From: Galerina marginata
Lineage: Eukaryota; Basidiomycota; Agaricomycetes; Agaricales; Galerinaceae
Reading direction: 5' to 3'
DNA: 64,000 bases
Assembly: GCA_023014335.1 (NCBI GenBank)
Contig: JAECYW010000004.1
Span: 2,604,001 to 2,668,000 of the forward strand
The notes below the pieces were generated by a model. The model saw nothing but the letters and a program-made list of their open reading frames with translations. It was not told the origin of the DNA and made no database searches. Positions 3,456 to 55,259 of this stretch are shown piece by piece. Within the stretch, counting starts at the first letter, position 1; every line of letters starts with the position of its first letter. The translations under genes and the position numbers were made by a program.

Positions 3456-4729
3456 CTTGGTCAGAGGCCATTGCTGCACATGGCAAAAACAAGTTCTTAC
3501 TTTTAAGGTAAGTCTGACTATAAATAAAGGTTAAATAAGTAAATAATACATAGTCCGCTCAGTTCTGAAGCTATTGGGATGATCTTATACTCAAAAAAAG
3601 CAGAAAAATGAGGCCAATCTAACAAGCCTAAAACGGCCTGGTCACGTGACCAGGAAGGCCCTGATTTTTACGAATTTTTTGATACCAAAATCATCAAAAT
3701 TGGCTGAGTAATGGCTGAGATACAGAAACCATGCAGGGTCACTGTATGAGTGGGAGAATTTCGAACCATTGCGTTAGGAATGTTTTCTGCCTGCTATGCA
3801 GGCCGGAAAACAAGTTCTTTTACTATGTAAGAACTTGTAACAAGATTAATTATTAGACTACAATAAGAAACTTATAAGAAGATTAATTTATACGTCGCTT
3901 AGTTTTTATCAGATTGCCTTGAAACAAAATGTGCAATTATCAGAAAAATCAGGGCTAAAGGATGGTGTCACATGCGTATTGTGACATCTTTATGTGACTT
4001 ACCAAATGCGGAATATTGTTGAAAACACAGTAAATAAGCTATATTGAGAGATTTTAAAGGCATTAAAATAAAATAAAAATACTGATAATGTTTTTTACCT
4101 AAGAGATGGTCTGTGCACACATATCACATGACATATCCCTGAGAATATTTTGGTCTAACTTGGTGCATCAACTGATTCCAAGGCAATTGCACAGAGTTCT
4201 GTTGTGAGTTTGATTGTGTAAGCATCTATTACATCATATTGAAGCTATTTGGTCATGTTTTGCAGTGTTTGGTATGCCTTTTATGGGTTATCCAGTCAGT
4301 TTAACACTAATTTTGCGATTTTCACTGAGTTAAGCTGGCTGTTTGCCAGATTTAGACACCATGAGATCATTGCAAAACATATGTAAATATTTGTACATTA
4401 TTTTAGATTGGTCTGGGCAACATATTTTAGCATATCTAGCTCACTGAAATCTGCTTCAAGTGTAAATTCACACAAATTTCCGCTTTTTGGGTCGTGTGAA
4501 CAGATCACATGACCAAATCGTCCCTGGATACCCATGCCACATGAAAACCCTGATTTTTACGAATTTTTTGATACCAAAATCATCAAAATTGGCTGAGTAA
4601 TGGCTGAGATACAGAAACCATGCAGGGTCACTGTATGAGTGGGAGAATTTCGAACCATTGCGTTAGGAATGTTTTCTGCCTGCTATGCAGGCCGGAAAAC
4701 AAGTTCTTTTACTACATAAGAACTTGTAA
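3456..4729 (-). mobile_element. Non-autonomous Helentron C (n = 1)
   Basis: It lies 3'-end-left: CTTGGTCAGAGG with hairpin at 3456, and the 5' end ...AACTTGTAA at 4729. Two 5'-end palindromes start at 3810 and 4699, 889 bp apart, so the 1,274 bp are 385 + 1 x 889. The flanks GCAGA and TCTTCTT rejoin as Val-Ala-Asp-Leu-Leu-Thr-Lys, the normal copia C-terminus, proving an A/T insertion without target duplication. It has no coding capacity. Confidence 0.9.
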
Positions 4730-4799
4730 TCTTCTTACCAAACCCCTTTCACCTTCCAAAGTTGCATTTTGCAGAGAACGAATGGGTCTTAGGCCTTAG
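4730..4799 (+). CDS. Ty1/copia C-terminal exon-like remainder
   Basis: The codons after element C read LLTKPLSPSKVAF and end at TAG 4797-4799. This is the typical ADLLTKPL ending of copia RNase H and continues directly from the frame ending at 3455. Confidence 0.85.
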
Positions 4800-4844
4800 G
4801 CCAATTGTTTTTGTGTTCTGGAGACTGGCCAGATCAGGGGGGTG

Positions 4845-5407: not shown

Positions 5408-5799
5408 TTACAAGTTCTTACGTAGTAAAAGAACTTGTTTTACGTCCTGCATAGCAGGCAGAAATGGTTTCTAACGCAATCGTTTGAAATTCTCCCACTC
5501 ATACTGTGACCCTGCATGATTTCTGTATCTCAACCATTACTGGGCCAAATTTTATGATTTTGGTATCAAAAAAAATTGTAAAAATCAGGGCCTTCCTGGT
5601 CACGTGACCAGTTGATTTTAGGCTTGTTAGAATTGCCTTATTTTTCTGCTTTTTTTGAGTATAAATAAGATCATCCCAATCGGTTCAGATTTGAGCGGAC
5701 TACCTATTATTTACTTATTTAACATGTATTTAGATAATAACAAAAACCCCCAAGGTAAGAACTTGTTTTTGCCATGCGCAGCAATGGCCTCTTAACAAG
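5408..5799 (+). mobile_element. Non-autonomous Helentron D (n = 0, 392 bp)
   Basis: The minimal form: the 5' end TTACAAGTTCTTAC with its palindrome, the palindrome-like ...GGTCACGTGACC... in the middle, the internal arm GTAAGAACTTGT, hairpin GCCATGCGCAGCAATGGC, and the end CTCTTAACAAG at 5799. The flanks are A and T. The left flank is the 5190-5407 repeat but the right flank is gypsy coding sequence, so the two sides were not one uninterrupted sequence before insertion. Confidence 0.88.
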
Positions 5800-10049: not shown

Positions 10050-13000
10050 TTACAAGTTCTTACGTAGTAAAAGAACTTGTTTTCTACACTTGATAGCAGA
10101 AGGAAATGGTTTCTAACGCAATGGTTGGAAATTCTCCCACTGCTATAGTGACCCTGCATGGTTTCTGTATCTCAGCCATTACTGGGCCAATTTTGATGAT
10201 CTTGGTATCAAAAAAATTGTAAAAATCACGGCTTTCATGTGGCATGTGTATCCAGGGTTGATTAGGTCATGTGACCTGTTCACACGACCCAAAAAGCGCA
10301 AATTTGTGTAAATTTACACTTAAAACAGATTTCAGTGAGCTAGATATACTAAAATATGTTACCCAGACCAATCTAGAATAATGTACAAATATTTACATAT
10401 GTTTTGCAATGATGTCATGGTGTCCAAATCTGGCAAACAGCTAGCTTAACTCAGTAAAAATCGCAAAATTGGTGTTAAACTGACTGGATAACCCATGAAA
10501 GCCACACCAAACATTGCAAAACATGACCAAATGACTTGAATATAATGTTCTAGATGCTTACATAATCAAACTCACAGCAGAACTTTGTGCAATTGCCTTG
10601 GAATCAGTTGATGCACCAAGTTAGACCAAAATATTTTCAGGGATATGTCATGTGATATGTGTGCACAGACCATCTTTTAGGTAAAAAAACATCATTAGTA
10701 TTTTTATTTTATTTTAATGCCTTTAAAATCTCTTAAAATGGCTTATTTACTGTGTATTTCAAACAATATTCCGCATTTAGTAAGTCACATAACAATGTGA
10801 CAATACATATGTGACATCATTTGATAGCCCTAATTTTTCTGATAATTACACACTTTATTTCAAGGCAATCCGATAAAAACTAAGCGATGTATGAATTAAT
10901 CTTGTTACAAGTTCTTACGTAGTAAAAGAACTTGTTTTCTACACTTGATAGCAGAAGGAAATGGTTTCTAACGCAATGGTTGGAAATTCTCCCACTGCTA
11001 TAGTGACCCTGCATGGTTTCTGTATCTCAGCCATTACTGGGCCAATTTTGATGATCTTGGTATCAAAAAAATTGTAAAAATCACGGCTTTCATGTGGCAT
11101 GTGTATCCAGGGTTGATTAGGTCATGTGACCTGTTCACACGACCCAAAAAGCGCAAATTTGTGTAAATTTACACTTAAAACAGATTTCAGTGAGCTAGAT
11201 ATACTAAAATATGTTACCCAGACCAATCTAGAATAATGTACAAATATTTACATATGTTTTGCAATGATGTCATGGTGTCCAAATCTGGCAAACAGCTAGC
11301 TTAACTCAGTAAAAATCGCAAAATTGGTGTTAAACTGACTGGATAACCCATGAAAGCCACACCAAACATTGCAAAACATGACCAAATGACTTGAATATAA
11401 TGTTCTAGATGCTTACATAATCAAACTCACAGCAGAACTTTGTGCAATTGCCTTGGAATCAGTTGATGCACCAAGTTAGACCAAAATATTTTCAGGGATA
11501 TGTCATGTGATATGTGTGCACAGACCATCTTTTAGGTAAAAAAACATCATTAGTATTTTTATTTTATTTTAATGCCTTTAAAATCTCTTAAAATGGCTTA
11601 TTTACTGTGTATTTCAAACAATATTCCGCATTTAGTAAGTCACATAACAATGTGACAATACATATGTGACATCATTTGATAGCCCTAATTTTTCTGATAA
11701 TTACACACTTTATTTCAAGGCAATCCGATAAAAACTAAGCGATGTATGAATTAATCTTGTTACAAGTTCTTACGTAGTAAAAGAACTTGTTTTCTACACT
11801 TGATAGCAGAAGGAAATGGTTTCTAACGCAATGGTTGGAAATTCTCCCACTGCTATAGTGACCCTGCATGGTTTCTGTATCTCAGCCATTACTGGGCCAA
11901 TTTTGATGATCTTGGTATCAAAAAAATTGTAAAAATCACGGCTTTCATGTGGCATGTGTATCCAGGGTTGATTAGGTCATGTGACCTGTTCACACGACCC
12001 AAAAAGCGCAAATTTGTGTAAATTTACACTTAAAACAGATTTCAGTGAGCTAGATATACTAAAATATGTTACCCAGACCAATCTAGAATAATGTACAAAT
12101 ATTTACATATGTTTTGCAATGATGTCATGGTGTCCAAATCTGGCAAACAGCTAGCTTAACTCAGTAAAAATCGCAAAATTGGTGTTAAACTGACTGGATA
12201 ACCCATGAAAGCCACACCAAACATTGCAAAACATGACCAAATGACTTGAATATAATGTTCTAGATGCTTACATAATCAAACTCACAGCAGAACTTTGTGC
12301 AATTGCCTTGGAATCAGTTGATGCACCAAGTTAGACCAAAATATTTTCAGGGATATGTCATGTGATATGTGTGCACAGACCATCTTTTAGGTAAAAAAAC
12401 ATCATTAGTATTTTTATTTTATTTTAATGCCTTTAAAATCTCTTAAAATGGCTTATTTACTGTGTATTTCAAACAATATTCCGCATTTAGTAAGTCACAT
12501 AACAATGTGACAATACATATGTGACATCATTTGATAGCCCTAATTTTTCTGATAATTACACACTTTATTTCAAGGCAATCCGATAAAAACTAAGCGATGT
12601 ATGAATTAATCTTGTTACAAGTTCTTACGTAGTAAAAGAACTTGTTTTCTACACTTGATAGCAGAAGGAAATGGTTTCTAACGCAATGGTTGGAAATTCT
12701 CCCACTGCTATAGTGACCCTGCATGGTTTCTGTATCTCAGCCATTACTGGGCCAATTTTGATGATCTTGGTATCAAAAAAATTGTAAAAATCACGGCTTT
12801 CATGTGGCATGTGTATCCAGGGTTGATTAGGTCATGTGACCTGTTCACACGACCCAAAAAGCGCAAATTTGTGTAAATTTACACTTAAAACAGATTTCAG
12901 TGAGCTAGATATACTAAAATATGTTACCCAGACCAATCTAGAATAATGTACAAATATTTACATATGTTTTGCAATGATGTCATGGTGTCCAAATCTGGCA

Positions 13001-16000
13001 AACAGCTAGCTTAACTCAGTAAAAATCGCAAAATTGGTGTTAAACTGACTGGATAACCCATGAAAGCCACACCAAACATTGCAAAACATGACCAAATGAC
13101 TTGAATATAATGTTCTAGATGCTTACATAATCAAACTCACAGCAGAACTTTGTGCAATTGCCTTGGAATCAGTTGATGCACCAAGTTAGACCAAAATATT
13201 TTCAGGGATATGTCATGTGATATGTGTGCACAGACCATCTTTTAGGTAAAAAAACATCATTAGTATTTTTATTTTATTTTAATGCCTTTAAAATCTCTTA
13301 AAATGGCTTATTTACTGTGTATTTCAAACAATATTCCGCATTTAGTAAGTCACATAACAATGTGACAATACATATGTGACATCATTTGATAGCCCTAATT
13401 TTTCTGATAATTACACACTTTATTTCAAGGCAATCCGATAAAAACTAAGCGATGTATGAATTAATCTTGTTACAAGTTCTTACGTAGTAAAAGAACTTGT
13501 TTTCTACACTTGATAGCAGAAGGAAATGGTTTCTAACGCAATGGTTGGAAATTCTCCCACTGCTATAGTGACCCTGCATGGTTTCTGTATCTCAGCCATT
13601 ACTGGGCCAATTTTGATGATCTTGGTATCAAAAAAATTGTAAAAATCACGGCTTTCATGTGGCATGTGTATCCAGGGTTGATTAGGTCATGTGACCTGTT
13701 CACACGACCCAAAAAGCGCAAATTTGTGTAAATTTACACTTAAAACAGATTTCAGTGAGCTAGATATACTAAAATATGTTACCCAGACCAATCTAGAATA
13801 ATGTACAAATATTTACATATGTTTTGCAATGATGTCATGGTGTCCAAATCTGGCAAACAGCTAGCTTAACTCAGTAAAAATCGCAAAATTGGTGTTAAAC
13901 TGACTGGATAACCCATGAAAGCCACACCAAACATTGCAAAACATGACCAAATGACTTGAATATAATGTTCTAGATGCTTACATAATCAAACTCACAGCAG
14001 AACTTTGTGCAATTGCCTTGGAATCAGTTGATGCACCAAGTTAGACCAAAATATTTTCAGGGATATGTCATGTGATATGTGTGCACAGACCATCTTTTAG
14101 GTAAAAAAACATCATTAGTATTTTTATTTTATTTTAATGCCTTTAAAATCTCTTAAAATGGCTTATTTACTGTGTATTTCAAACAATATTCCGCATTTAG
14201 TAAGTCACATAACAATGTGACAATACATATGTGACATCATTTGATAGCCCTAATTTTTCTGATAATTACACACTTTATTTCAAGGCAATCCGATAAAAAC
14301 TAAGCGATGTATGAATTAATCTTGTTACAAGTTCTTACGTAGTAAAAGAACTTGTTTTCTACACTTGATAGCAGAAGGAAATGGTTTCTAACGCAATGGT
14401 TGGAAATTCTCCCACTGCTATAGTGACCCTGCATGGTTTCTGTATCTCAGCCATTACTGGGCCAATTTTGATGATCTTGGTATCAAAAAAATTGTAAAAA
14501 TCACGGCTTTCATGTGGCATGTGTATCCAGGGTTGATTAGGTCATGTGACCTGTTCACACGACCCAAAAAGCGCAAATTTGTGTAAATTTACACTTAAAA
14601 CAGATTTCAGTGAGCTAGATATACTAAAATATGTTACCCAGACCAATCTAGAATAATGTACAAATATTTACATATGTTTTGCAATGATGTCATGGTGTCC
14701 AAATCTGGCAAACAGCTAGCTTAACTCAGTAAAAATCGCAAAATTGGTGTTAAACTGACTGGATAACCCATGAAAGCCACACCAAACATTGCAAAACATG
14801 ACCAAATGACTTGAATATAATGTTCTAGATGCTTACATAATCAAACTCACAGCAGAACTTTGTGCAATTGCCTTGGAATCAGTTGATGCACCAAGTTAGA
14901 CCAAAATATTTTCAGGGATATGTCATGTGATATGTGTGCACAGACCATCTTTTAGGTAAAAAAACATCATTAGTATTTTTATTTTATTTTAATGCCTTTA
15001 AAATCTCTTAAAATGGCTTATTTACTGTGTATTTCAAACAATATTCCGCATTTAGTAAGTCACATAACAATGTGACAATACATATGTGACATCATTTGAT
15101 AGCCCTAATTTTTCTGATAATTACACACTTTATTTCAAGGCAATCCGATAAAAACTAAGCGATGTATGAATTAATCTTGTTACAAGTTCTTACGTAGTAA
15201 AAGAACTTGTTTTCTACACTTGATAGCAGAAGGAAATGGTTTCTAACGCAATGGTTGGAAATTCTCCCACTGCTATAGTGACCCTGCATGGTTTCTGTAT
15301 CTCAGCCATTACTGGGCCAATTTTGATGATCTTGGTATCAAAAAAATTGTAAAAATCACGGCTTTCATGTGGCATGTGTATCCAGGGTTGATTAGGTCAT
15401 GTGACCTGTTCACACGACCCAAAAAGCGCAAATTTGTGTAAATTTACACTTAAAACAGATTTCAGTGAGCTAGATATACTAAAATATGTTACCCAGACCA
15501 ATCTAGAATAATGTACAAATATTTACATATGTTTTGCAATGATGTCATGGTGTCCAAATCTGGCAAACAGCTAGCTTAACTCAGTAAAAATCGCAAAATT
15601 GGTGTTAAACTGACTGGATAACCCATGAAAGCCACACCAAACATTGCAAAACATGACCAAATGACTTGAATATAATGTTCTAGATGCTTACATAATCAAA
15701 CTCACAGCAGAACTTTGTGCAATTGCCTTGGAATCAGTTGATGCACCAAGTTAGACCAAAATATTTTCAGGGATATGTCATGTGATATGTGTGCACAGAC
15801 CATCTTTTAGGTAAAAAAACATCATTAGTATTTTTATTTTATTTTAATGCCTTTAAAATCTCTTAAAATGGCTTATTTACTGTGTATTTCAAACAATATT
15901 CCGCATTTAGTAAGTCACATAACAATGTGACAATACATATGTGACATCATTTGATAGCCCTAATTTTTCTGATAATTACACACTTTATTTCAAGGCAATC

Positions 16001-18599
16001 CGATAAAAACTAAGCGATGTATGAATTAATCTTGTTACAAGTTCTTACGTAGTAAAAGAACTTGTTTTCTACACTTGATAGCAGAAGGAAATGGTTTCTA
16101 ACGCAATGGTTGGAAATTCTCCCACTGCTATAGTGACCCTGCATGGTTTCTGTATCTCAGCCATTACTGGGCCAATTTTGATGATCTTGGTATCAAAAAA
16201 ATTGTAAAAATCACGGCTTTCATGTGGCATGTGTATCCAGGGTTGATTAGGTCATGTGACCTGTTCACACGACCCAAAAAGCGCAAATTTGTGTAAATTT
16301 ACACTTAAAACAGATTTCAGTGAGCTAGATATACTAAAATATGTTACCCAGACCAATCTAGAATAATGTACAAATATTTACATATGTTTTGCAATGATGT
16401 CATGGTGTCCAAATCTGGCAAACAGCTAGCTTAACTCAGTAAAAATCGCAAAATTGGTGTTAAACTGACTGGATAACCCATGAAAGCCACACCAAACATT
16501 GCAAAACATGACCAAATGACTTGAATATAATGTTCTAGATGCTTACATAATCAAACTCACAGCAGAACTTTGTGCAATTGCCTTGGAATCAGTTGATGCA
16601 CCAAGTTAGACCAAAATATTTTCAGGGATATGTCATGTGATATGTGTGCACAGACCATCTTTTAGGTAAAAAAACATCATTAGTATTTTTATTTTATTTT
16701 AATGCCTTTAAAATCTCTTAAAATGGCTTATTTACTGTGTATTTCAAACAATATTCCGCATTTAGTAAGTCACATAACAATGTGACAATACATATGTGAC
16801 ATCATTTGATAGCCCTAATTTTTCTGATAATTACACACTTTATTTCAAGGCAATCCGATAAAAACTAAGCGATGTATGAATTAATCTTGTTACAAGTTCT
16901 TACGTAGTAAAAGAACTTGTTTTCTACACTTGATAGCAGAAGGAAATGGTTTCTAACGCAATGGTTGGAAATTCTCCCACTGCTATAGTGACCCTGCATG
17001 GTTTCTGTATCTCAGCCATTACTGGGCCAATTTTGATGATCTTGGTATCAAAAAAATTGTAAAAATCACGGCTTTCATGTGGCATGTGTATCCAGGGTTG
17101 ATTAGGTCATGTGACCTGTTCACACGACCCAAAAAGCGCAAATTTGTGTAAATTTACACTTAAAACAGATTTCAGTGAGCTAGATATACTAAAATATGTT
17201 ACCCAGACCAATCTAGAATAATGTACAAATATTTACATATGTTTTGCAATGATGTCATGGTGTCCAAATCTGGCAAACAGCTAGCTTAACTCAGTAAAAA
17301 TCGCAAAATTGGTGTTAAACTGACTGGATAACCCATGAAAGCCACACCAAACATTGCAAAACATGACCAAATGACTTGAATATAATGTTCTAGATGCTTA
17401 CATAATCAAACTCACAGCAGAACTTTGTGCAATTGCCTTGGAATCAGTTGATGCACCAAGTTAGACCAAAATATTTTCAGGGATATGTCATGTGATATGT
17501 GTGCACAGACCATCTTTTAGGTAAAAAAACATCATTAGTATTTTTATTTTATTTTAATGCCTTTAAAATCTCTTAAAATGGCTTATTTACTGTGTATTTC
17601 AAACAATATTCCGCATTTAGTAAGTCACATAACAATGTGACAATACATATGTGACATCATTTGATAGCCCTAATTTTTCTGATAATTACACACTTTATTT
17701 CAAGGCAATCCGATAAAAACTAAGCGATGTATGAATTAATCTTGTTACAAGTTCTTACGTAGTAAAAGAACTTGTTTTCTACACTTGATAGCAGAAGGAA
17801 ATGGTTTCTAACGCAATGGTTGGAAATTCTCCCACTGCTATAGTGACCCTGCATGGTTTCTGTATCTCAGCCATTACTGGGCCAATTTTGATGATCTTGG
17901 TATCAAAAAAATTGTAAAAATCACGGCTTTCATGTGGCATGTGTATCCAGGGTTGATTAGGTCATGTGACCTGTTCACACGACCCAAAAAGCGCAAATTT
18001 GTGTAAATTTACACTTAAAACAGATTTCAGTGAGCTAGATATACTAAAATATGTTACCCAGACCAATCTAGAATAATGTACAAATATTTACATATGTTTT
18101 GCAATGATGTCATGGTGTCCAAATCTGGCAAACAGCTAGCTTAACTCAGTAAAAATCGCAAAATTGGTGTTAAACTGACTGGATAACCCATGAAAGCCAC
18201 ACCAAACATTGCAAAACATGACCAAATGACTTGAATATAATGTTCTAGATGCTTACATAATCAAACTCACAGCAGAACTTTGTGCAATTGCCTTGGAATC
18301 AGTTGATGCACCAAGTTAGACCAAAATATTTTCAGGGATATGTCATGTGATATGTGTGCACAGACCATCTTTTAGGTAAAAAAACATCATTAGTATTTTT
18401 ATTTTATTTTAATGCCTTTAAAATCTCTTAAAATGGCTTATTTACTGTGTATTTCAAACAATATTCCGCATTTAGTAAGTCACATAACAATGTGACAATA
18501 CATATGTGACATCATTTGATAGCCCTAATTTTTCTGATAATTACACACTTTATTTCAAGGCAATCCGATAAAAACTAAGCGATGTATGAATTAATCTTG
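10050..18599 (+). repeat. Tandem array, 10 x 855 bp, each unit starting with a 5' terminus
   Basis: Palindromic 5' ends start at 10052, 10907, 11762, 12617, 13472, 14327, 15182, 16037, 16892, 17747 and (the single-copy base) 18602, exactly 855 bp apart. Blocks 3,420 bp apart read letter for letter the same. Each unit is about 183 bp of 5' end (to ATCACGGC) plus about 672 bp of AT-rich spacer containing GGTCATGTGACC. The spacer is replaced after the last 5' end by the 3' segment that begins TTCCTGGTCACGTGACC. Confidence 0.95.
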
Positions 18600-22300: not shown

Positions 22301-22386
22301 AGAATTTCCAACCATTGCGTTAGAAACCATTTCTGCCTGCTATGCAGGCCGGAAAACAAGTTCTTTTACTACGTAAGAACTTGTAA
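19362..22386 (-). mobile_element. Non-autonomous Helentron F with a 3-unit array
   Basis: The 3' terminus is at the left (CTTGGTCAGAGG, 19362) and the 5' terminus at the right (ends 22386). Palindromes start at 19716, 20596, 21476 and 22356, 880 bp apart, so 3,025 bp = 385 + 3 x 880. The units differ from those of E (880 vs 855 bp) and carry a partly duplicated 5' end (AAGAACTTGTAATAAG). The left flank is the end of the split paralogue on the plus strand; the right flank is a minus-strand ORF starting CCTCG, not the expected T. The flanks do not rejoin. Confidence 0.88.
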
Positions 22387-26091: not shown

Positions 26092-26205
26092 TATATTATT
26101 GGGTTGGCAAAAATAAGTCCTCATGTACTATGTCTCAGGTAATTGATTAATAATGGAGTGAGATGTTATCTGATTGGACTGATCTTAGATTCCTTGGAAA
26201 GATAA

Positions 26206-38463: not shown

Positions 38464-41400
38464 CTTGGTCAGAGGCCATTGCTGCGCATGGCAAAAACAA
38501 GTTCTTACTTTCTAGGTGAGTCCGACTATAAATAAAGGTTAAAATAAGTAAATAATGCATAGTCCGCTCAAATGTGAAGCTATTGGGATGATCTTATACT
38601 CAAAAAAAGCAGAAAAATGAGGCCGTTCTAACAAGCCTAAAACGGCCTGGTCACGTGACCAGGAAGGCCGTGATTTTTACAATTTTTTTGATACCAAGAT
38701 CATCAAAATTGGCCCAGTAATGGCTGAGATACAGAAACCATGCAGGGTCACTATAGCAGTGGGAGAATTTCCAACCATTGCGTTAGAAACCATTTCCTTC
38801 TGCTATCAAGTGTAGAAAACAAGTTCTTTTACTACGTAAGAACTTGTAACAAGATTAATTCATACATCGCTTAGTTTTTATCGGATTGCCTTGAAATAAA
38901 GTGTGTAATTATCAGAAAAATTAGGGCTATCAAATGATGTCACATATGTATTGTCACATTGTTATGTGACTTACTAAATGCGGAATATTGTTTGAAATAC
39001 ACAGTAAATAAGCCATTTTAAGAGATTTTAAAGGCATTAAAATAAAATAAAAATACTAATGATGTTTTTTTACCTAAAAGATGGTCTGTGCACACATATC
39101 ACATGACATATCCCTGAAAATATTTTGGTCTAACTTGGTGCATCAACTGATTCCAAGGCAATTGCACAAAGTTCTGCTGTGAGTTTGATTATGTAAGCAT
39201 CTAGAACATTATATTCAAGTCATTTGGTCATGTTTTGCAATGTTTGGTGTGGCTTTCATGGGTTATCCAGTCAGTTTAACACCAATTTTGCGATTTTTAC
39301 TGAGTTAAGCTAGCTGTTTGCCAGATTTGGACACCATGACATCATTGCAAAACATATGTAAATATTTGTACATTATTCTAGATTGGTCTGGGTAACATAT
39401 TTTAGTATATCTAGCTCACTGAAATCTGTTTTAAGTGTAAATTTACACAAATTTGCGCTTTTTGGGTCGTGTGAACAGGTCACATGACCTAATCAACCCT
39501 GGATACACATGCCACATGAAAGCCGTGATTTTTACAATTTTTTTGATACCAAGATCATCAAAATTGGCCCAGTAATGGCTGAGATACAGAAACCATGCAG
39601 GGTCACTATAGCAGTGGGAGAATTTCCAACCATTGCGTTAGAAACCATTTCCTTCTGCTATCAAGTGTAGAAAACAAGTTCTTTTACTACGTAAGAACTT
39701 GTAACAAGATTAATTCATACATCGCTTAGTTTTTATCGGATTGCCTTGAAATAAAGTGTGTAATTATCAGAAAAATTAGGGCTATCAAATGATGTCACAT
39801 ATGTATTGTCACATTGTTATGTGACTTACTAAATGCGGAATATTGTTTGAAATACACAGTAAATAAGCCATTTTAAGAGATTTTAAAGGCATTAAAATAA
39901 AATAAAAATACTAATGATGTTTTTTTACCTAAAAGATGGTCTGTGCACACATATCACATGACATATCCCTGAAAATATTTTGGTCTAACTTGGTGCATCA
40001 ACTGATTCCAAGGCAATTGCACAAAGTTCTGCTGTGAGTTTGATTATGTAAGCATCTAGAACATTATATTCAAGTCATTTGGTCATGTTTTGCAATGTTT
40101 GGTGTGGCTTTCATGGGTTATCCAGTCAGTTTAACACCAATTTTGCGATTTTTACTGAGTTAAGCTAGCTGTTTGCCAGATTTGGACACCATGACATCAT
40201 TGCAAAACATATGTAAATATTTGTACATTATTCTAGATTGGTCTGGGTAACATATTTTAGTATATCTAGCTCACTGAAATCTGTTTTAAGTGTAAATTTA
40301 CACAAATTTGCGCTTTTTGGGTCGTGTGAACAGGTCACATGACCTAATCAACCCTGGATACACATGCCACATGAAAGCCGTGATTTTTACAATTTTTTTG
40401 ATACCAAGATCATCAAAATTGGCCCAGTAATGGCTGAGATACAGAAACCATGCAGGGTCACTATAGCAGTGGGAGAATTTCCAACCATTGCGTTAGAAAC
40501 CATTTCCTTCTGCTATCAAGTGTAGAAAACAAGTTCTTTTACTACGTAAGAACTTGTAACAAGATTAATTCATACATCGCTTAGTTTTTATCGGATTGCC
40601 TTGAAATAAAGTGTGTAATTATCAGAAAAATTAGGGCTATCAAATGATGTCACATATGTATTGTCACATTGTTATGTGACTTACTAAATGCGGAATATTG
40701 TTTGAAATACACAGTAAATAAGCCATTTTAAGAGATTTTAAAGGCATTAAAATAAAATAAAAATACTAATGATGTTTTTTTACCTAAAAGATGGTCTGTG
40801 CACACATATCACATGACATATCCCTGAAAATATTTTGGTCTAACTTGGTGCATCAACTGATTCCAAGGCAATTGCACAAAGTTCTGCTGTGAGTTTGATT
40901 ATGTAAGCATCTAGAACATTATATTCAAGTCATTTGGTCATGTTTTGCAATGTTTGGTGTGGCTTTCATGGGTTATCCAGTCAGTTTAACACCAATTTTG
41001 CGATTTTTACTGAGTTAAGCTAGCTGTTTGCCAGATTTGGACACCATGACATCATTGCAAAACATATGTAAATATTTGTACATTATTCTAGATTGGTCTG
41101 GGTAACATATTTTAGTATATCTAGCTCACTGAAATCTGTTTTAAGTGTAAATTTACACAAATTTGCGCTTTTTGGGTCGTGTGAACAGGTCACATGACCT
41201 AATCAACCCTGGATACACATGCCACATGAAAGCCGTGATTTTTACAATTTTTTTGATACCAAGATCATCAAAATTGGCCCAGTAATGGCTGAGATACAGA
41301 AACCATGCAGGGTCACTATAGCAGTGGGAGAATTTCCAACCATTGCGTTAGAAACCATTTCCTTCTGCTATCAAGTGTAGAAAACAAGTTCTTTTACTAC

Positions 41401-43979
41401 GTAAGAACTTGTAACAAGATTAATTCATACATCGCTTAGTTTTTATCGGATTGCCTTGAAATAAAGTGTGTAATTATCAGAAAAATTAGGGCTATCAAAT
41501 GATGTCACATATGTATTGTCACATTGTTATGTGACTTACTAAATGCGGAATATTGTTTGAAATACACAGTAAATAAGCCATTTTAAGAGATTTTAAAGGC
41601 ATTAAAATAAAATAAAAATACTAATGATGTTTTTTTACCTAAAAGATGGTCTGTGCACACATATCACATGACATATCCCTGAAAATATTTTGGTCTAACT
41701 TGGTGCATCAACTGATTCCAAGGCAATTGCACAAAGTTCTGCTGTGAGTTTGATTATGTAAGCATCTAGAACATTATATTCAAGTCATTTGGTCATGTTT
41801 TGCAATGTTTGGTGTGGCTTTCATGGGTTATCCAGTCAGTTTAACACCAATTTTGCGATTTTTACTGAGTTAAGCTAGCTGTTTGCCAGATTTGGACACC
41901 ATGACATCATTGCAAAACATATGTAAATATTTGTACATTATTCTAGATTGGTCTGGGTAACATATTTTAGTATATCTAGCTCACTGAAATCTGTTTTAAG
42001 TGTAAATTTACACAAATTTGCGCTTTTTGGGTCGTGTGAACAGGTCACATGACCTAATCAACCCTGGATACACATGCCACATGAAAGCCGTGATTTTTAC
42101 AATTTTTTTGATACCAAGATCATCAAAATTGGCCCAGTAATGGCTGAGATACAGAAACCATGCAGGGTCACTATAGCAGTGGGAGAATTTCCAACCATTG
42201 CGTTAGAAACCATTTCCTTCTGCTATCAAGTGTAGAAAACAAGTTCTTTTACTACGTAAGAACTTGTAACAAGATTAATTCATACATCGCTTAGTTTTTA
42301 TCGGATTGCCTTGAAATAAAGTGTGTAATTATCAGAAAAATTAGGGCTATCAAATGATGTCACATATGTATTGTCACATTGTTATGTGACTTACTAAATG
42401 CGGAATATTGTTTGAAATACACAGTAAATAAGCCATTTTAAGAGATTTTAAAGGCATTAAAATAAAATAAAAATACTAATGATGTTTTTTTACCTAAAAG
42501 ATGGTCTGTGCACACATATCACATGACATATCCCTGAAAATATTTTGGTCTAACTTGGTGCATCAACTGATTCCAAGGCAATTGCACAAAGTTCTGCTGT
42601 GAGTTTGATTATGTAAGCATCTAGAACATTATATTCAAGTCATTTGGTCATGTTTTGCAATGTTTGGTGTGGCTTTCATGGGTTATCCAGTCAGTTTAAC
42701 ACCAATTTTGCGATTTTTACTGAGTTAAGCTAGCTGTTTGCCAGATTTGGACACCATGACATCATTGCAAAACATATGTAAATATTTGTACATTATTCTA
42801 GATTGGTCTGGGTAACATATTTTAGTATATCTAGCTCACTGAAATCTGTTTTAAGTGTAAATTTACACAAATTTGCGCTTTTTGGGTCGTGTGAACAGGT
42901 CACATGACCTAATCAACCCTGGATACACATGCCACATGAAAGCCGTGATTTTTACAATTTTTTTGATACCAAGATCATCAAAATTGGCCCAGTAATGGCT
43001 GAGATACAGAAACCATGCAGGGTCACTATAGCAGTGGGAGAATTTCCAACCATTGCGTTAGAAACCATTTCCTTCTGCTATCAAGTGTAGAAAACAAGTT
43101 CTTTTACTACGTAAGAACTTGTAACAAGATTAATTCATACATCGCTTAGTTTTTATCGGATTGCCTTGAAATAAAGTGTGTAATTATCAGAAAAATTAGG
43201 GCTATCAAATGATGTCACATATGTATTGTCACATTGTTATGTGACTTACTAAATGCGGAATATTGTTTGAAATACACAGTAAATAAGCCATTTTAAGAGA
43301 TTTTAAAGGCATTAAAATAAAATAAAAATACTAATGATGTTTTTTTACCTAAAAGATGGTCTGTGCACACATATCACATGACATATCCCTGAAAATATTT
43401 TGGTCTAACTTGGTGCATCAACTGATTCCAAGGCAATTGCACAAAGTTCTGCTGTGAGTTTGATTATGTAAGCATCTAGAACATTATATTCAAGTCATTT
43501 GGTCATGTTTTGCAATGTTTGGTGTGGCTTTCATGGGTTATCCAGTCAGTTTAACACCAATTTTGCGATTTTTACTGAGTTAAGCTAGCTGTTTGCCAGA
43601 TTTGGACACCATGACATCATTGCAAAACATATGTAAATATTTGTACATTATTCTAGATTGGTCTGGGTAACATATTTTAGTATATCTAGCTCACTGAAAT
43701 CTGTTTTAAGTGTAAATTTACACAAATTTGCGCTTTTTGGGTCGTGTGAACAGGTCACATGACCTAATCAACCCTGGATACACATGCCACATGAAAGCCG
43801 TGATTTTTACAATTTTTTTGATACCAAGATCATCAAAATTGGCCCAGTAATGGCTGAGATACAGAAACCATGCAGGGTCACTATAGCAGTGGGAGAATTT
43901 CCAACCATTGCGTTAGAAACCATTTCCTTCTGCTATCAAGTGTAGAAAACAAGTTCTTTTACTACGTAAGAACTTGTAA
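38464..43979 (-). mobile_element. Non-autonomous Helentron P with a 6-unit array
   Basis: The 3' end is at 38464 and the 5' end at 43979. Palindromes start at 38819, 39674, 40529, 41384, 42239, 43094 and 43949, each 855 bp apart. The length is 5,516 = 386 + 6 x 855. Everywhere I compared, the unit and the 3' segment are the exact reverse complement of element E. It inserted in gypsy-2 integrase between HHPQTD and GQTE at GACCA/TCTG, with no target duplication. Confidence 0.94.
38819..43948 (-). repeat. Tandem array, 6 x 855 bp
   Basis: Same unit as the array at 10050, in opposite orientation. Each unit holds a complete 5' terminus and the spacer. Confidence 0.94.
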
Positions 43980-45557: not shown

Positions 45558-46596
45558 CATAAATCTTGGGGAATTGCCCATTAAGCCTCATGCATCAGAA
45601 GGGACAACTGTCCTTTGGACAGTTTACCAAGATATAATATAAGGCATATTGTTGGCCTAATATCTCAATAGGGAATGGGATTGACCATGTGATTTAAATG
45701 CTAGAAAGGTCTAAAAATAGATTACGTTAATCTGAGGGTATATTTCCTTTTTTGGAAATTTTCCCGTCTGCCAAAAATTTCCCAGAGAAGCCTGATAATG
45801 ATTTTTTGTTTGGACAATAGCTCAATTACGAGTTCTTACGTAGTAAAAGAACTCGTTTTCCACACTTGATAGCTGAAGGATATGGTTTCTAACGCGAACG
45901 ATGGAAATTCTCCCACTGCTTCATTTTTTGTGACTGACCCTGAATTATAAGTCTACAAATTTTGTAATAGTGGGAATTTTTTTTGACAGTGAGAATGGTT
46001 GTGTGATGCGCATTGCTATGGGCTATTTTTAGCTTTTGTGTCTAAAAACCTAAGTTAGGGTTAGATCTTTTGTGCTGCGCTACTGACCACTATGGCTAGT
46101 ATTTTTTTGCAAAGCAAATATAAGTCCTAAACTAACTACTATAGACTGCTTAGAATACTCTAGTCTACAAAAAACACTAGAGAGGTACACCAGAAACCCT
46201 ATTCTAGCCTATAAACAATCAACTAATATGTTATACCAGGAAAAGAAGTTATTTACCTGTAAAAGTACTTAAAACTTAGGTTTCTCTACTAAATTCTGCC
46301 TATAACTACATAGAAGACACAACAAAGACAACAAACCATGTAAAAGGCCACAAAAAGCGCCAGCAAAGCACTGGTATAGCCTAGAACTAAGGCAAAAGAA
46401 ACCTAGAGAAAGAGAAACAACAGTTAGTAGGATACCTTGACCAGCATACCATGGTAGTCCTCTCAAGAGAGGTACACTATCATCCTATCCGGGACAACTG
46501 GCATGCTGGTAAAGAAGAAAGAAGCGATGAGCTGGCAGTTTATGACAGTGTGAAATGTGTCATGTGATTTTGTTTTTTTAGGGTTAAGGTTCCAAT

Positions 46597-46638
46597 GTGG
46601 CTGTGAAAGCTCCGTCGCGACGGAGGCCTCACAGCCAC
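46597..46638. repeat. GTGGCTGTG hairpin in L1
   Basis: GTGGCTGTGAAAGCTCCGTC, then a centre at CGCG, then the complement ending CACAGCCAC; the stem is about 20 bp with two mismatches. The mirrored copy in L2 is near 53262-53303. Confidence 0.85.
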
Positions 46639-47265
46639 CAAATAACACCTAAGGTTAGGTTTATTTTGTATTTTAGCCATATCTCACTGATTTTTCAATC
46701 AAATCCAATGATTCTAACACCAATAAAAGGGGAAAATCAGATAGTTTCATATCAATAGACAAAAAGTTGAAAAAAATCCATCAAATTAGGTAATATATTG
46801 GGAAATGCATATAATTGTAGTGCTCTGCTTTATGTTCTTCTACTTTCCCCTCACTTGGTTAAAAAACATTGCTCTGGTAAAAGATTTGGTGCATTTGAGT
46901 TTGAAATCATTTCCCAAATGTCTTAAACATGATAAAAGTGGCTCAGATTGCAGAAATCACATGAAAAAGAAGTCAAATCACTCAAAAAATGCACTTTTAC
47001 TGTTATTGAACCCAGAGATCAATATTTATAGGTATATAGCCATCCACCAAAGTCTTTAACTTTCTTAAATTACCAAATTCCTTTACTTTAAATGATTAAA
47101 ATATCAAAATCTCCAAATTTTGCAATTTTGCAGTCATGTGACCTTTGCTCACAGACCACCATTCTATAGCCCTGAATTTTTTGCTTTTTATACATTTTAT
47201 TTTAAAGAAATCCATGAAAAACTCAGCTCAATACAGTGAATAACATAAGGTGTAGTGATTTGATT

Positions 47266-47593
47266 GTGGCTGTGCAGAATACTTTGTGGCTGTGCATAAT
47301 GCCCTTTGAAAGGCCTGAATTTTACAAATTTTTTGACATTATTTTTGTGAGAATTGACCCAGTAATGACTGAGATACACTGAAAACAATATTTTGGTGTG
47401 GCTGTGAGACCTCCATCAGGACGGAGGTCTCACAGCCACATTGGAACCCTAACCCTAAAAAACAAAATCACCAATTTACCTTTAAAACATCAATTACTGG
47501 GTCAATTCTCACAAAATTAATGTCAAAAAAATTGTAAAATTCAGGCTTTTCAAATGGCATTATGCACAGCCACAAAGTATTCTGCACAGCCAC
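47266..47593. repeat. Nested palindrome of about 330 bp in L1
   Basis: Outer arms start GTGGCTGTGCAGAATAC and end with the complement. Inner arms share GCATAATGCC, TTGTGAGAATTGACCCAGTA and others. The centre is a second hairpin at 47398-47439 (GTGGCTGTGAGACCTCC ... CACAGCCAC). A CCCTAACCCTAAA stretch follows the centre. This is a foldback-like insertion or a palindrome formed inside L. Confidence 0.8.
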
Positions 47594-49491
47594 ATCAAAT
47601 TATTATTTTTAGTGTATTTTATTCATTACTCAGTCAATTCTTGCAAAAATGATATCAGAAAAATTGTAAAATTCAAGCCTTATAAATGTAGTACTTTTTG
47701 ATTACAAATATATTAATATCATGTGACCAGGTATTTTTTTATTATTGAGAAATAGCTTTTGGACCCAAGTCTCCAAATCAGTAGTGAGCCTGTAATATGC
47801 TCAAATCTGATTCAAATTGCACAAATTTAATATTAAAAAGACCAGAATATTTAGGGTAATTAAATAGCGGGATAACTATTTGCAAATATTTGGCTTTGTT
47901 TGTTTTATTCAAGAAATAAGTATTTTGCATCCATGAGTGGGAAAGCTCTGGAATGAGAACAAAATCTGTAAAATAAAAGATATTTTTTGGGGTCAAATAT
48001 ATTATACTATGTAATCTGGCAACTTTCTTGTTCAGAAAATGACAAAGATAGGAGTATAAATATATTATACCATCACAGTTTTCTGAATTCTGCTCAAAAT
48101 ATTGTGAAGTTTATACCATAAAATTTGGAAGTTCTTGACAATCCACTGCTTATATTTATACTGACAAATATTTGCAAATATTTGCAACATTCCTAAAATA
48201 CTTTAATTTAATATTTAAATTATTCATTTTGTTGTACTTGTAAATGCTGAGCCATAATTACAATTTCTTTAGGTCTTTAAATATTCCTTAATGTTTTTAA
48301 TCTACAAATTATCTTTAATAATGGGGTAGTTGATACTAAAAAGCCTATAAAGCCAACATTGATTTTTTGCATATTTAGCTTACTTTTAGCCAAACTGATA
48401 GTCCTGAATAGCATGTATATTTGGCATGATACTCTTCTTACAATATTATATGACTATTGAGTGGCTAAAATGAGTATATTGGGATATATTTATTAAATCA
48501 GTAATTAATTTTATCAATAAATACCAATCTACTGTATGATAAATTAGTCTGGCCTATTGATTATGTAAACTTATTGAAAAAAGAAAAAAAAATGATATAA
48601 AGAACTCGTATTTGCCATGCGCAGCAATGGCTGCTTTACAAGTAAGGAAAGCAGATAGGGGTACGATTTGAGTGGATTCAGGGTCGTCTAGCCTAAACGC
48701 AGGTTTTTTATTAGTAGCACAGCCACATCCAAGAACATTTAATATATTTTTGGACAGTTGACCAAATAGAGACTTGTCCATTTCATAAATTGCCCAAATG
48801 GACAACTGTCCAAGAATATGTCAAATGTTCTCGGATGTGGCTGTGCTACTAACAAAAAACCTGCGTTTAGGCTAGACGACCCTGAATCCCCTCAAATCGT
48901 ACTCCTATCTGCTTTCCTTATTGAGCTATTGTCCAAACAAAAAATCGTTATCAGGCTTCTCTGAGAAATTTTTGGCAGATGGGAAAATTTCCAAAAAAGG
49001 AAATATACCCTCAGATTAACGTAATCTATTTTTAGACCTTTCTAGCATTTAAATCACATTACTAGTTGCATTCCTCATTGAGATATAAGCACTTTAATAA
49101 TATTTAATAGATTAAGAAACTTATCAGAAATACTGCTAAGTACAGAACTGGCTGGATGACTAAGTCTTGCCATTTTGGGAATTTACACTGTTTTGGCTTT
49201 TTATATCATAAATGCAGTGGCTCTGAGGACTTATATTTATATTTGTTTGGATTTGAGGCCATAAAATTACATAAATGTGCGACAAGCATGTAAATAGAGG
49301 CAAATCCAAAGTCACATGATCTTATTTGATGCCATCAAACTGTAAACAACCAATACCATTATAGTATAAATGTATCATATAGCGTAAACGTCTTATAGAT
49401 GGACAATTGCCCAAAGGACAGTTGTCCGTTCTGATGCATGAAGCTTATTGGGCAACTGTCCATCCTGATGGCTTCATATGACAGCCATGGC

Positions 49492-51168: not shown

Positions 51169-54100
51169 CTTGGTCAGAGGCCATTGCTGCGCATGGCAAA
51201 AACAAGTTCTTACTTTCTAGGTGAGTCCGACTATAAATAAAGGTTAAATAAGTAAACTTGTAAAGCAGCCATTGCTGCGCATGGCAAATACGAGTTCTTT
51301 ATATCATTTTTTTTTCTTTTTTCAATAAGTTTACATAATCAATAGGCCAGACTAATTTATCATACAGTAGATTGGTATTTATTGATAAAATTAATTACTG
51401 ATTTAATAAATATATCCCAATATACTCATTTTAGCCACTCAATAGTCATATAATATTGTAAGAAGAGTATCATGCCAAATATACATGCTATTCAGGACTA
51501 TCAGTTTGGCTAAAAGTAAGCTAAATATGCAAAAAATCAATGTTGGCTTTATAGGCTTTTTAGTATCAACTACCCCATTATTAAAGATAATTTGTAGATT
51601 AAAAACATTAAGGAATATTTAAAGACCTAAAGAAATTGTAATTATGGCTCAGCATTTACAAGTACAACAAAATGAATAATTTAAATATTAAATTAAAGTA
51701 TTTTAGGAATGTTGCAAATATTTGCAAATATTTGTCAGTATAAATATAAGCAGTGGATTGTCAAGAACTTCCAAATTTTATGGTATAAACTTCACAATAT
51801 TTTGAGCAGAATTCAGAAAACTGTGATGGTATAATATATTTATACTCCTATCTTTGTCATTTTCTGAACAAGAAAGTTGCCAGATTACATAGTATAATAT
51901 ATTTGACCCCAAAAAATATCTTTTATTTTACAGATTTTGTTCTCATTCCAGAGCTTTCCCACTCATGGATGCAAAATACTTATTTCTTGAATAAAACAAA
52001 CAAAGCCAAATATTTGCAAATAGTTATCCCGCTATTTAATTACCCTAAATATTCTGGTCTTTTTAATATTAAATTTGTGCAATTTGAATCAGATTTGAGC
52101 ATATTACAGGCTCACTACTGATTTGGAGACTTGGGTCCAAAAGCTATTTCTCAATAATAAAAAAATACCTGGTCACATGATATTAATATATTTGTAATCA
52201 AAAAGTACTACATTTATAAGGCTTGAATTTTACAATTTTTCTGATATCATTTTTGCAAGAATTGACTGAGTAATGAATAAAATACACTAAAAATAATAAT
52301 TTGATGTGGCTGTGCAGAATACTTTGTGGCTGTGCATAATGCCATTTGAAAAGCCTGAATTTTACAATTTTTTTGACATTAATTTTGTGAGAATTGACCC
52401 AGTAATTGATGTTTTAAAGGTAAATTGGTGATTTTGTTTTTTAGGGTTAGGGTTCCAATGTGGCTGTGAGACCTCCGTCCTGATGGAGGTCTCACAGCCA
52501 CACCAAAATATTGTTTTCAGTGTATCTCAGTCATTACTGGGTCAATTCTCACAAAAATAATGTCAAAAAATTTGTAAAATTCAGGCCTTTCAAAGGGCAT
52601 TATGCACAGCCACAAAGTATTCTGCACAGCCACAATCAAATCACTACACCTTATGTTATTCACTGTATTGAGCTGAGTTTTTCATGGATTTCTTTAAAAT
52701 AAAATGTATAAAAAGCAAAAAATTCAGGGCTATAGAATGGTGGTCTGTGAGCAAAGGTCACATGACTGCAAAATTGCAAAATTTGGAGATTTTGATATTT
52801 TAATCATTTAAAGTAAAGGAATTTGGTAATTTAAGAAAGTTAAAGACTTTGGTGGATGGCTATATACCTATAAATATTGATCTCTGGGTTCAATAACAGT
52901 AAAAGTGCATTTTTTGAGTGATTTGACTTCTTTTTCATGTGATTTCTGCAATCTGAGCCACTTTTATCATGTTTAAGACATTTGGGAAATGATTTCAAAC
53001 TCAAATGCACCAAATCTTTTACCAGAGCAATGTTTTTTAACCAAGTGAGGGGAAAGTAGAAGAACATAAAGCAGAGCACTACAATTATATGCATTTCCCA
53101 ATATATTACCTAATTTGATGGATTTTTTTCAACTTTTTGTCTATTGATATGAAACTATCTGATTTTCCCCTTTTATTGGTGTTAGAATCATTGGATTTGA
53201 TTGAAAAATCAGTGAGATATGGCTAAAATACAAAATAAACCTAACCTTAGGTGTTATTTGGTGGCTGTGAGGCCTCCGTCGCGACGGAGCTTTCACAGCC
53301 ACATTGGAACCTTAACCCTAAAAAAACAAAATCACATGACACATTTCACACTGTCATAAACTGCCAGCTCATCGCTTCTTTCTTCTTTACCAGCATGCCA
53401 GTTGTCCCGGATAGGATGATAGTGTACCTCTCTTGAGAGGACTACCATGGTATGCTGGTCAAGGTATCCTACTAACTGTTGTTTCTCTTTCTCTAGGTTT
53501 CTTTTGCCTTAGTTCTAGGCTATACCAGTGCTTTGCTGGCGCTTTTTGTGGCCTTTTACATGGTTTGTTGTCTTTGTTGTGTCTTCTATGTAGTTATAGG
53601 CAGAATTTAGTAGAGAAACCTAAGTTTTAAGTACTTTTACAGGTAAATAACTTCTTTTCCTGGTATAACATATTAGTTGATTGTTTATAGGCTAGAATAG
53701 GGTTTCTGGTGTACCTCTCTAGTGTTTTTTGTAGACTAGAGTATTCTAAGCAGTCTATAGTAGTTAGTTTAGGACTTATATTTGCTTTGCAAAAAAATAC
53801 TAGCCATAGTGGTCAGTAGCGCAGCACAAAAGATCTAACCCTAACTTAGGTTTTTAGACACAAAAGCTAAAAATAGCCCATAGCAACGCGCATCACACAA
53901 CCATTCTCACTGTCAAAAAAAATTCCCACTATTACAAAATTTGTAGACTTATAATTCAGGGTCAGTCACAAAAAATGAAGCAGTGGGAGAATTTCCATCG
54001 TTCGCGTTAGAAACCATATCCTTCAGCTATCAAGTGTGGAAAACGAGTTCTTTTACTACGTAAGAACTCGTAATATTACATAGTCCGTTCAAATCTGAAG

Positions 54101-55259
54101 CTATTAGGATGTTCTTATACTCAAAAAAAGCAGAAAAATGAGGCGGATCTAACAAGCCTAAAACGGCCTGGTCACGTGACCAGGAAGGCCCTGATTTTTA
54201 CAATTTTTTTGATACCAAGATCATAAAAATTGGCCCAGTAATGGCTGAGATACAGAAACCATGCAGGGTCACTATAGCAGTGGGAGAATTTCCAACCATT
54301 GCGTTAGGAATGTTTTCTGCCTGCTATGCAGGCCGGAAAACAAGTTCTTTTACTACGTAAGAACTTGTAACAAGATTAATTAATTGACTACAATAAGAAC
54401 TTGTAATAAGATTAGTTCATACGTCACTTAGTTTTTATCAGATTTCCTTGAAATAAAGTGTGTAATTATCAGAAAAATTAGGGCTAAACGATGGTGTCAC
54501 ATGCGTATTGTCACATGTTTATGTGACTTACCAAATGCGGAATATTGTTGAAAACACAGTAAATAAGCTATATTGAGAGATTTTAAAGACATTAAAATGA
54601 AATAAAAATACTGATAATGTTTTTTTTACCTAAGAGATGGTCTGTGCACACATATCACATGACATATCCCTGAGAATATTTTGGTCCAAGTTGGTGCATT
54701 ACCAAATCCAAGGCAATTGCACAAAGTCCTGCTGTGAGTTTGATTATGTAAGCTTCTAGAACATTATTTCCATGTTATTTGGTCATGTTTTGCAATGTTT
54801 GGTCTGCCTTTTATGGGTTATCCAGTCAGTTTAACACCAATTTTCGGATTTTCACCAAGTTGAGCTGACTGTTTGCCTGATTTGGACACCATGACATCAT
54901 TGCAAAACATATGTAAATATTTGTACATTATTCTAGATTGGTCTGGGCAACACATTTTAGCATATTTAGCTCACTGAAATCTGTTTTAAGTGTAAATTCA
55001 CACAAATTTGCGCTTTTTGGGTCGTGTGAGCAGGTCACATGACCTAATCAACCCTGGATAAACATGCCACATGAAAGCCCTGATTTTTACGATTTTTTTG
55101 ATACCAAGATCATAAAAATTGGCCCAGTAATGGCTGAGATACAGAAACCATGCAGGGTCACTATAGCAGTGGGAGAATTTCCAACCATTGCGTTAGGAAT
55201 GTTTTCTGCCTGCTATGCAGGCCGGAAAACAAGTTCTTTTACTACGTAAGAACTTGTAA
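51169..55259 (-). mobile_element. Non-autonomous Helentron N (n = 1), split by L2
   Basis: The 3' end CTTGGTCAGAGG is at 51169 and the 5' end ...AACTTGTAA at 55259. Palindromes at 54340 and 55229 lie 889 bp apart. Without L2 (51257-54073) the element is 88 + 1,186 = 1,274 bp, the same length and unit size as element C, so the two are sister copies. The left flank is the gypsy-2 frame (A), the right flank T but non-gypsy. Confidence 0.88.
51257..54073 (-). mobile_element. Non-autonomous Helentron L2 (2,817 bp), inverted copy of L1
   Basis: It begins CTTGTAAAGCAGCCATTGCT and ends ...GAACTCGTAA at 54073. It has the same length as L1 and is its reverse complement with very few differences (for example GCGCG vs GCGCA near 53888). 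It inserted inside Helentron N at AAGTAAA/TATTACATAG, which other family members show uninterrupted, so again A/T with no duplication. Confidence 0.92.

What the first reader, a model, noticed from the sequence alone, without database searches (positions are those of the whole stretch)
3456..55259. One Helentron family obeys length = 385 + n x ~870 bp, with a complete 5' end in every unit and one 3' end
Seen directly. Nine members give: D 392, I 380, J 386 (n=0); C 1,274, G 1,244, N 1,274 (n=1, units 889, 845, 889); F 3,025 (n=3 x 880); P 5,516 (n=6 x 855); E 8,936 (n=10 x 855). Each unit begins with the full TTACAAGTTCTTAC palindrome and about 180 bp of 5' end; only the last is joined to the 3' hairpin segment. 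Inference: rolling-circle initiation at any internal 5' end would release shorter elements, down to the 386-bp form. An array element would then be a factory producing a ladder of sizes from a single 3' end.
Basis: partly seen in the sequence, partly recalled or inferred. Interest (0 to 1): 0.92.

Follow-up and report, generated by a model that had tools for sequence, protein, structure and literature searches.

The report
Rolling-circle transposon with copy-number ladder
A fungus carries a small rolling-circle transposon whose copies hold from zero to at least eleven start units but only one end, a pattern already reported from plant centromeres that can be read here in fresh, undecayed copies.

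Summary
A non-autonomous rolling-circle family has the plan (A-B)n-A-C: A is a 5' end of about 183 bp with a palindrome, B is 660-700 bp, C is the only 3' end. The ladder holds outside the window: 38 elements closed from position lists on two other contigs measure 361-411, 1230-1275, 2103-2183 and 4847 bp (24 of 62 3' ends could not be closed). The unit is not a universal ~870 bp; it is fixed within an array (12 of 13) and ranges from 843 to 891 bp. All units are identical in 10 of 18 arrays read, while B differs between elements by a median 7%. Copies with 0-2 other differences sit at unrelated sites with n = 10, 6, 1, 1. Empty sites show clean insertion of arrays with n = 5, 5, 2, 1. Internal starts fit the shorter copies but cannot lengthen arrays; mosaic units point to template switching or recombination in A and B. 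Closest precedent: plant centromeric Helitron arrays with many 5' ends and one 3' end (Xiong et al. 2016, seen only as summarised in a review). No endonuclease was found in the RepHel relative, so Helitron2 is the better name. New variant of a known kind.

The parts
10050..18985 (+). Element E, n=10: ten identical 855-bp A-B units and a last A joined to C
18600..18782 (+). last A of E (183 bp), identical to the A of its units
18783..18985 (+). C of E: start palindrome CCTGGTCACGTGACCAGG, subterminal inverted repeat, hairpin GCCATGCGCAGCAATGGC, end CAAG before T
38464..43979 (-). Element P, n=6; units and last A-C identical to those of E; different flanks
19362..22386 (-). Element F, n=3 x 880; first unit differs at 9 positions from the other two
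3456..4729 (-). Element C, n=1 (889-bp unit); near-copy in C34:2457700-2459250 (unit 2 differences, last A-C 0)
23775..25018 (-). Element G, n=1 (844-bp unit)
51169..55259 (-). Element N, n=1, 1,274 bp once the nested element is left out
51257..54073 (-). 2,817-bp related non-autonomous element nested in N (5' TTACGAG); 1 mismatch from the copy at 45826-48642
45826..48642 (+). second copy of the 2,817-bp related element
5408..5799 (+). Element D, n=0, 392 bp
27014..27399 (-). n=0 element, 386 bp
26425..26803 (-). n=0 element, 379 bp
1..2291 (+). 3' part of a 10.9-kb RepHel (Helitron2-type) element that starts at C34:2595397; its 3' hairpin and end resemble those of the array family

Best explanation
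A non-autonomous Helitron2/HINE-type rolling-circle transposon has a second copy of its own replication start downstream of the first, so that the minimal form A-C became A-B-A-C and then (A-B)n-A-C. Shown: exact ends, clean insertion before a T, variable n between otherwise nearly identical copies, one fixed and often identical unit per array, and mosaic units and mosaic last A's. Inferred: a RepHel protein nicks at any A and stops at C, so a start at an internal A releases a copy with fewer units. When synthesis switches template from one A to another, or rolls round an A-B circle that has lost C, it adds identical A-B units. Copy number is therefore reset often, at or near transposition, and new copies settle mostly in the same block of the same contig.
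For: n varies among copies with almost no other difference: E n=10, P n=6, C34:2388188 n=1 (0 differences), C34:2435524 n=1 (2 substitutions), all with different flanks; C5 n=5 and n=4 (units 0, last A-C one indel); C1 n=5 and n=2 (last unit 0, C 4 substitutions). All units identical in 10 of 18 arrays with n of 2 or more, against a median 7% substitution in B over 861 element pairs. Last A identical over 183 bp to the A of the array's own last unit in 10 of 11 arrays with n of 4 or more, and in 17 of 40 elements with n of 1 or more. Switching: L050- carries units of one lineage and a last A identical (0/183) to that of its neighbour L050+ of another lineage; the first unit of the C23 array equals the second over positions 1-272 and then differs at 70 alignment positions. 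The 3'-most unit of a heterogeneous n=2 array is the one found in short copies: four n=1 copies on C4 (0, 0, 0, 1 differences) and two on C23 (1, 0). Joints of C to A are few, 13 places with up to one mismatch of which 6 exact, against 719 B-to-A junctions: the repeated piece lacks the 3' end.
Against: No circle, nick or intermediate was seen. On C4 the diagnostic sites lie only at unit positions 804-853, and on C23 the two units are identical over 1-272, so recombinational deletion would give the same n=1 copies; two of the four C4 copies (L058, L059) also lack 61 bp of C and differ from the array's last A at 10 and 1 positions. Patchy odd units fit ordinary gene conversion and unequal exchange. 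No n=0 copy of the E lineage in the list. In 8 of 18 arrays the units are not all identical, and in 23 of 40 elements the last A differs from the unit A. The RepHel elements with both ends read have other 5' letters than the arrays, so which RepHel moves them is inferred.
Confidence: 0.5

Rival explanations
1. Arrays grow, shrink and are homogenised in place by unequal exchange, slippage and gene conversion, as satellites are; transposition only copies whatever n is there, always from the outermost 5' end to C.
For: Differences between units of one array come in patches (804-853 in L056; 203-317 in L051) or scattered sites (78-628 in F), like conversion tracts. The last A of L050- matches that of its inverted neighbour.
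Against: n = 10, 6, 1, 1 with 0-2 substitutions over about 17 kb needs in-place change far faster than mutation at several sites. Empty sites show arrays present between exact ends at clean insertions, though they do not date the array. The same insertion with different n was not found; the one candidate pair (L066, L067) shares its flank but L067 is interrupted, so it is inconclusive.
Confidence: 0.3
2. One reading: donor arrays of fixed length spin off shorter copies by internal initiation.
For: Short copies hold the unit that is 3'-most in a longer relative; n=0 is scattered over the tree of A-C (10 changes, shuffled mean 11.3, 102 of 500 shuffles as low).
Against: Gives no growth, yet several lineages have arrays of freshly identical units. 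No n=0 copy of the E lineage in the list.
Confidence: 0.15
3. Array copy number is an assembly artefact (collapse or expansion of tandem repeats).
For: No reads were available to check it.
Against: 43 contigs for 69.3 Mb suggests long reads (inference), and arrays of at most about 10 kb are within their reach. Single unit variants are kept apart inside arrays: one substitution in one of ten units in L047, different first units in F and L051. n of 1 and 2 is hardly subject to collapse.
Confidence: 0.05

Closest known systems
Tandem centromeric Helitron arrays of plants (Xiong, Dooner and Du 2016, Plant J 88:1038; paper itself not read; seen as passages of the review PMC12628747, and as citations in PMC5148889 and PMC5876387)
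   Same: Many 5' ends and a single 3' end; the repeated piece is truncated at its 3' side; proposed cause is rolling-circle amplification of a circular template that lost its terminator; reported from plant centromeres.
   Different: Described there as partially decayed, truncated plant Helitrons, with several to several hundred units. Here the ends are Helitron2/HINE-like, the longest array seen has at least 11 units, units are often identical, and n is graded within one lineage.
HINE / DINE-1 / Cg_HINE elements with central tandem repeats (PMC4067079 and PMC7492417, passages)
   Same: Non-autonomous, subterminal inverted repeats, 3' stem-loop, T-rich target, satellite-like repeats, homogeneity of arrays noted.
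   Different: There the repeat is a central monomer (mostly 140-180 bp in oyster) between one left and one right flank; here the repeat of 843-891 bp itself starts with the full 5' end.
Helitron2-type elements of Fusarium, FoHeli (PMC5148889, passages)
   Same: Fungal, asymmetric terminal inverted repeats, hairpins, no endonuclease, PCR evidence for joined ends.
   Different: No array ladder is described in the passages read; one tandem pair is mentioned.

Membership tests
Helentron (strict) | AP endonuclease fused to the C-terminus of RepHel (PMC4067079 passage) | tested here: not met
   Pfam scan of three pieces of one RepHel (L039 and window): DUF6570, Helitron_like_N, PIF1; no endonuclease family up to E=1; about 35 codons at the window edge were not scanned, and only this copy was scanned
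Helitron2 / HINE | subterminal inverted repeats, palindromic 5' end | tested here: met
   the 34-base 5' end folds at -7.8 kcal/mol, z -4.6; its arm recurs inverted as GTAAGAACTTG near the 3' end
Helitron2 / HINE | stem-loop near the 3' end | tested here: met
   GCCATGCGCAGCAATGGC, 11 bp before the end, within the 34-base pattern found 547 times; but the fold of the 47-base 3' stretch is not exceptional (z -0.5)
Helitron2 / HINE | insertion at T without target duplication | tested here: met
   paralogous empty sites of elements with n = 5, 5, 2, 1, 0: N|T, one T in the empty site, which is ambiguous with the T at the element's start
Helitron2 / HINE | autonomous RepHel partner with the same ends | tested here: inconclusive
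   11.0-kb and 10.9-kb RepHel elements share the 3' hairpin but for one base and the CAAG end; their 5' end reads TTATGAGTCCTTT, not TTACAAGTTCTTAC
Plant-type tandem Helitron arrays | multiple 5' ends, one 3' end | tested here: met
Plant-type tandem Helitron arrays | located in centromeres | tested here: inconclusive
   202 of 206 listed hits of five capped searches lie within 300 kb of one centre on each of 16 contigs; no centromere protein data
Plant-type tandem Helitron arrays | rolling-circle origin | not testable with these tools
   no reads or DNA circles available

The most novel reading that the evidence does not exclude
Unit number is reset at almost every transposition because the element carries its replication origin in tandem: an A-B circle without a terminator is rolled out into identical units and then capped by an A-C end through a switch in A. 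The copies re-insert in the same block of the same chromosome, so one transposon family builds chromosome-specific, satellite-like arrays in what may be the fungal centromeres.
Probability: 0.3. Interest if true: 0.75.

Novelty: new variant of a known kind. Interest (0 to 1): 0.55.

Why it matters
Rolling-circle transposons are thought to seed satellite DNA, but the plant arrays are described as decayed. Here copies with n = 10, 6, 1 and 1 that differ by 0-2 substitutions lie at unrelated sites, so the making of arrays can be tested in a living fungus: circle PCR, strain comparison, and cutting assays on tandem 5' ends. It also looks like a transposon whose closest copies mostly stay on one chromosome.

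Tried and rejected
Origin of B: of 579 candidate B copies 40 were scored, and all 40 matched over 634-660 of 660 bases, so no B without its context was seen in that capped list. RepHel elements hold only short repeats like A positions 116-187; stretches of 53-71 bp like unit positions 766-836 occur in the 2.8-kb elements and at window 28336. Rfam gave no match in the window at gathering thresholds. Whole-element concatemers as the cause were set aside: few C-to-A joints, and the pair read in L044 at 6978/7025 joins different C types, so it looks like insertion at a 3' end. n=0 as a separate self-propagating clade was rejected by the tree (51 elements, 13 with n=0; 4 of 55 rows left out as duplicates or interrupted). 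My first length census chained neighbouring elements in three cases; one search replaces it. That no fungal report was found rests only on searches of an open-access library, of which I saw listings; one search returned no paper. PMC5876387 (Helraiser): passages seen.
Full report
The window lies at C34:2604001-2668000 of an unnamed 69.3-Mb genome in 43 contigs. The best relatives of its RepHel helicase piece are unnamed; the best named ones are Galerina marginata P0012 (74% over 67% of the query) and P0024 (69% over 65%), so the host is probably an agaric fungus; this is inference. Several long reading frames of the window look like retrotransposon pieces.

Anatomy. The element is (A-B)n-A-C. 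A begins TTACAAGTTCTTACGTAGTAAAAGAACTTGT, a hairpin with a 10-bp stem (-7.8 kcal/mol, z -4.6), and runs about 183 bp. B is 660-700 bp and ends ATTAATCTTG in the junctions searched. C is about 200 bp and in E starts with the palindrome CCTGGTCACGTGACCAGG; near its end it has a short inverted copy of the 5' end, the hairpin GCCATGCGCAGCAATGGC and finally CAAG, followed by T at every 3' end listed. The same A is joined either to B or to C. Paralogous empty sites for elements with n = 5, 5, 2, 1 and 0 show insertion between a base and a T with nothing duplicated beyond the ambiguous T (35 flank joins were tried, whose listing was cut, so this is not a full count). Arrays thus lie between exact transposon ends at clean insertion sites.

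Ladder. On C1 and the first part of C4, lists of exact ends gave 62 3' ends; 41 had an exact 5' end 280-380 bp upstream, 3 of these had B upstream but no exact outer 5' end, and the remaining 38 measure 361-411 bp (22), 1230-1275 (11), 2103-2183 (4) and 4847 (1). The 24 dropped 3' ends could hide other lengths, and the pairing rule favours the ladder. A first count had chained neighbours in three cases and is replaced. So the law is 385 + n x u, where u belongs to the array. Whole-genome counts are 1,171 5' ends, 719 B-to-A junctions and 547 3' ends. Thresholds differ, so 719/547 = 1.3 units per element is only a rough mean.

Identity inside, divergence outside. Of 18 arrays with at least two units that were read, 10 have all units identical, including E (10), P (6), L049 (8), L040, L041 and L050+ (5 each). 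The others: one substitution in one unit in L043, L047 and L066; an odd first unit in F (9), L051 (11), L056 (8) and C23 (56 substitutions and 14 gap positions); an odd last unit in L042. Between elements B differs by a median of 7% (42 elements, 861 pairs, range 0-10%). The last A equals the A of the array's own last unit over 183 bp in 10 of 11 arrays with n of 4 or more, but only in 17 of 40 elements with n of 1 or more; A differs by up to 13% between lineages (24 of 183 between E and C).

Same lineage, different n. E (n=10), P (n=6), an n=1 element at C34:2388188 with no difference and another at C34:2435524 with two substitutions have different flanks. On C5, n=5 and n=4 have identical units and last A, and C differs by one indel; two n=0 copies on the same contig differ from them at 4 and 6 of 385 positions. 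On C1, n=5 and n=2 share the last unit exactly but differ at 4 positions in C. On C4, the second unit of an n=2 array is shared, with 0, 0, 0 and 1 differences, by four n=1 copies at four other sites; the first unit was not seen alone among the 40 scored of 576 B candidates. Two of the four also match the array's A-C exactly; the other two lack 61 bp of C and differ at 10 and 1 positions in the last A. On C23, two n=1 copies match the second, 3'-most unit of an n=2 array with 1 and 0 differences, and its A-C with none. These are products expected of a start at an internal A. They do not prove it: on C4 the diagnostic sites lie only at 804-853, and on C23 the two units are identical over 1-272, so recombinational deletion would leave the same product. 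In a tree of 51 A-C ends, n=0 (13) is scattered: 10 changes, shuffled mean 11.3, 102 of 500 shuffles as low; support is weak, with 20 of 39 inner branches open.

Growth. Internal starts only shorten. L050- joins at least five units of one lineage to a last A identical to that of its inverted neighbour L050+ of another lineage; the break lies before position 93 of A. The first unit of the C23 array equals the second up to position 272 and then differs at 70 alignment positions. L058's last A differs from that of L059 at 9 sites although their C parts are identical. These mosaics show switching or recombination within A and B. Joints of C to A are few (13 with up to one mismatch, 6 exact, with the one pattern used). 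The amplified piece therefore lacks the 3' end, which fits the plant model in which a template that lost its terminator is rolled out (review passage). I favour this, with a switch in A that supplies the A-C cap, at 0.5; in-place exchange is the main rival at 0.3.

Place in the genome. 202 of 206 listed hits of five searches (each scoring 40 candidates) lie within 300 kb of one centre on each of 16 contigs (the centres were set from the same hits). The 5' ends of RepHel-type elements lie in the same blocks, 40 of 40 listed of 84 candidates. Against strict confinement: exact palindromes also lie at C4:717-723 kb, A-C copies at C39:1078-1222 kb, and the 120 matches to the Rep domain family are spread much more widely, many perhaps from other Helitron families. 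One main block per contig suggests centromeres; this was not tested. Near-identical sets of array elements lie on one contig each: E (4 elements), C5 (2), C1 (2), C4 (5), C23 (3), C34 (2). Against a strict rule, B copies on C43 and C42 score almost as high as the C5 set (1252 and 1248 against 1261 bits). Whether this is local re-insertion or conversion inside a block is open.

Partner. RepHel elements of 11.0 kb (C40, two copies 99.98% identical over the 5.4 kb compared on the 5' side) and 10.9 kb (C34, ending at window 2291) were delimited. Pieces of the C34 one carry DUF6570, Helitron_like_N and PIF1 and no endonuclease. Their 3' hairpin differs by one base from that of the arrays and they end in CAAG; their 5' end follows the same hairpin plan with other letters. 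By the definition and the fungal survey passage this is Helitron2-type rather than a Helentron.

Verdict. A real and clear case of a kind known from plants, new here in its Helitron2/HINE ends, its fungal host and its fresh, graded copies. Listings of the open-access library showed no fungal report of such arrays; most subscription papers are not held, and the 2016 plant paper itself was not read.

Noticed in passing
16 contigs, for example C1:336-572 kb, C5:76-200 kb, C34:2365-2647 kb: The listed hits of the array family and of RepHel-type 5' ends fall mostly in one block per contig, possibly the centromeres.
   Followed up: partly
end of B in many units of about 880-891 bp, for example window 19769-19782 and 20649-20662: An extra piece of about 36 bp holds a broken second copy of the 5' end just before the next A; the 855-bp units of E and P lack it.
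   Followed up: no
window 45826-48642 and 51257-54073: Two copies of a 2,817-bp related element with 5' TTACGAG and 1 mismatch between them; the second is nested in the 3' part of element N.
   Followed up: partly
L040 about 7500 (-), L041 8580 (+): An n=0 and an n=1 element of different C types sit at the same position of two copies of one host repeat, hinting at a preferred target or at conversion.
   Followed up: no
L044 5777-9900: Elements placed exactly at the 3' end of another element (CAAG joined to TTACAAG), and a segment of about 2,045 bp that seems to be present twice.
   Followed up: partly
L066 and L067 (C40:2634000-2636500, C40:2729300-2730900): Two elements share 168 bp of 5' flank, so the host repeat with its insertion may have been copied; L067 is interrupted inside its second A.
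   Followed up: partly
tree: n=0 elements seem to have longer end branches than array elements, as if recent births were mostly n of 1 or more; not tested.
   Followed up: no
window 104-1747: The C-terminal part of the RepHel reading frame has no Pfam match up to E=1.
   Followed up: no
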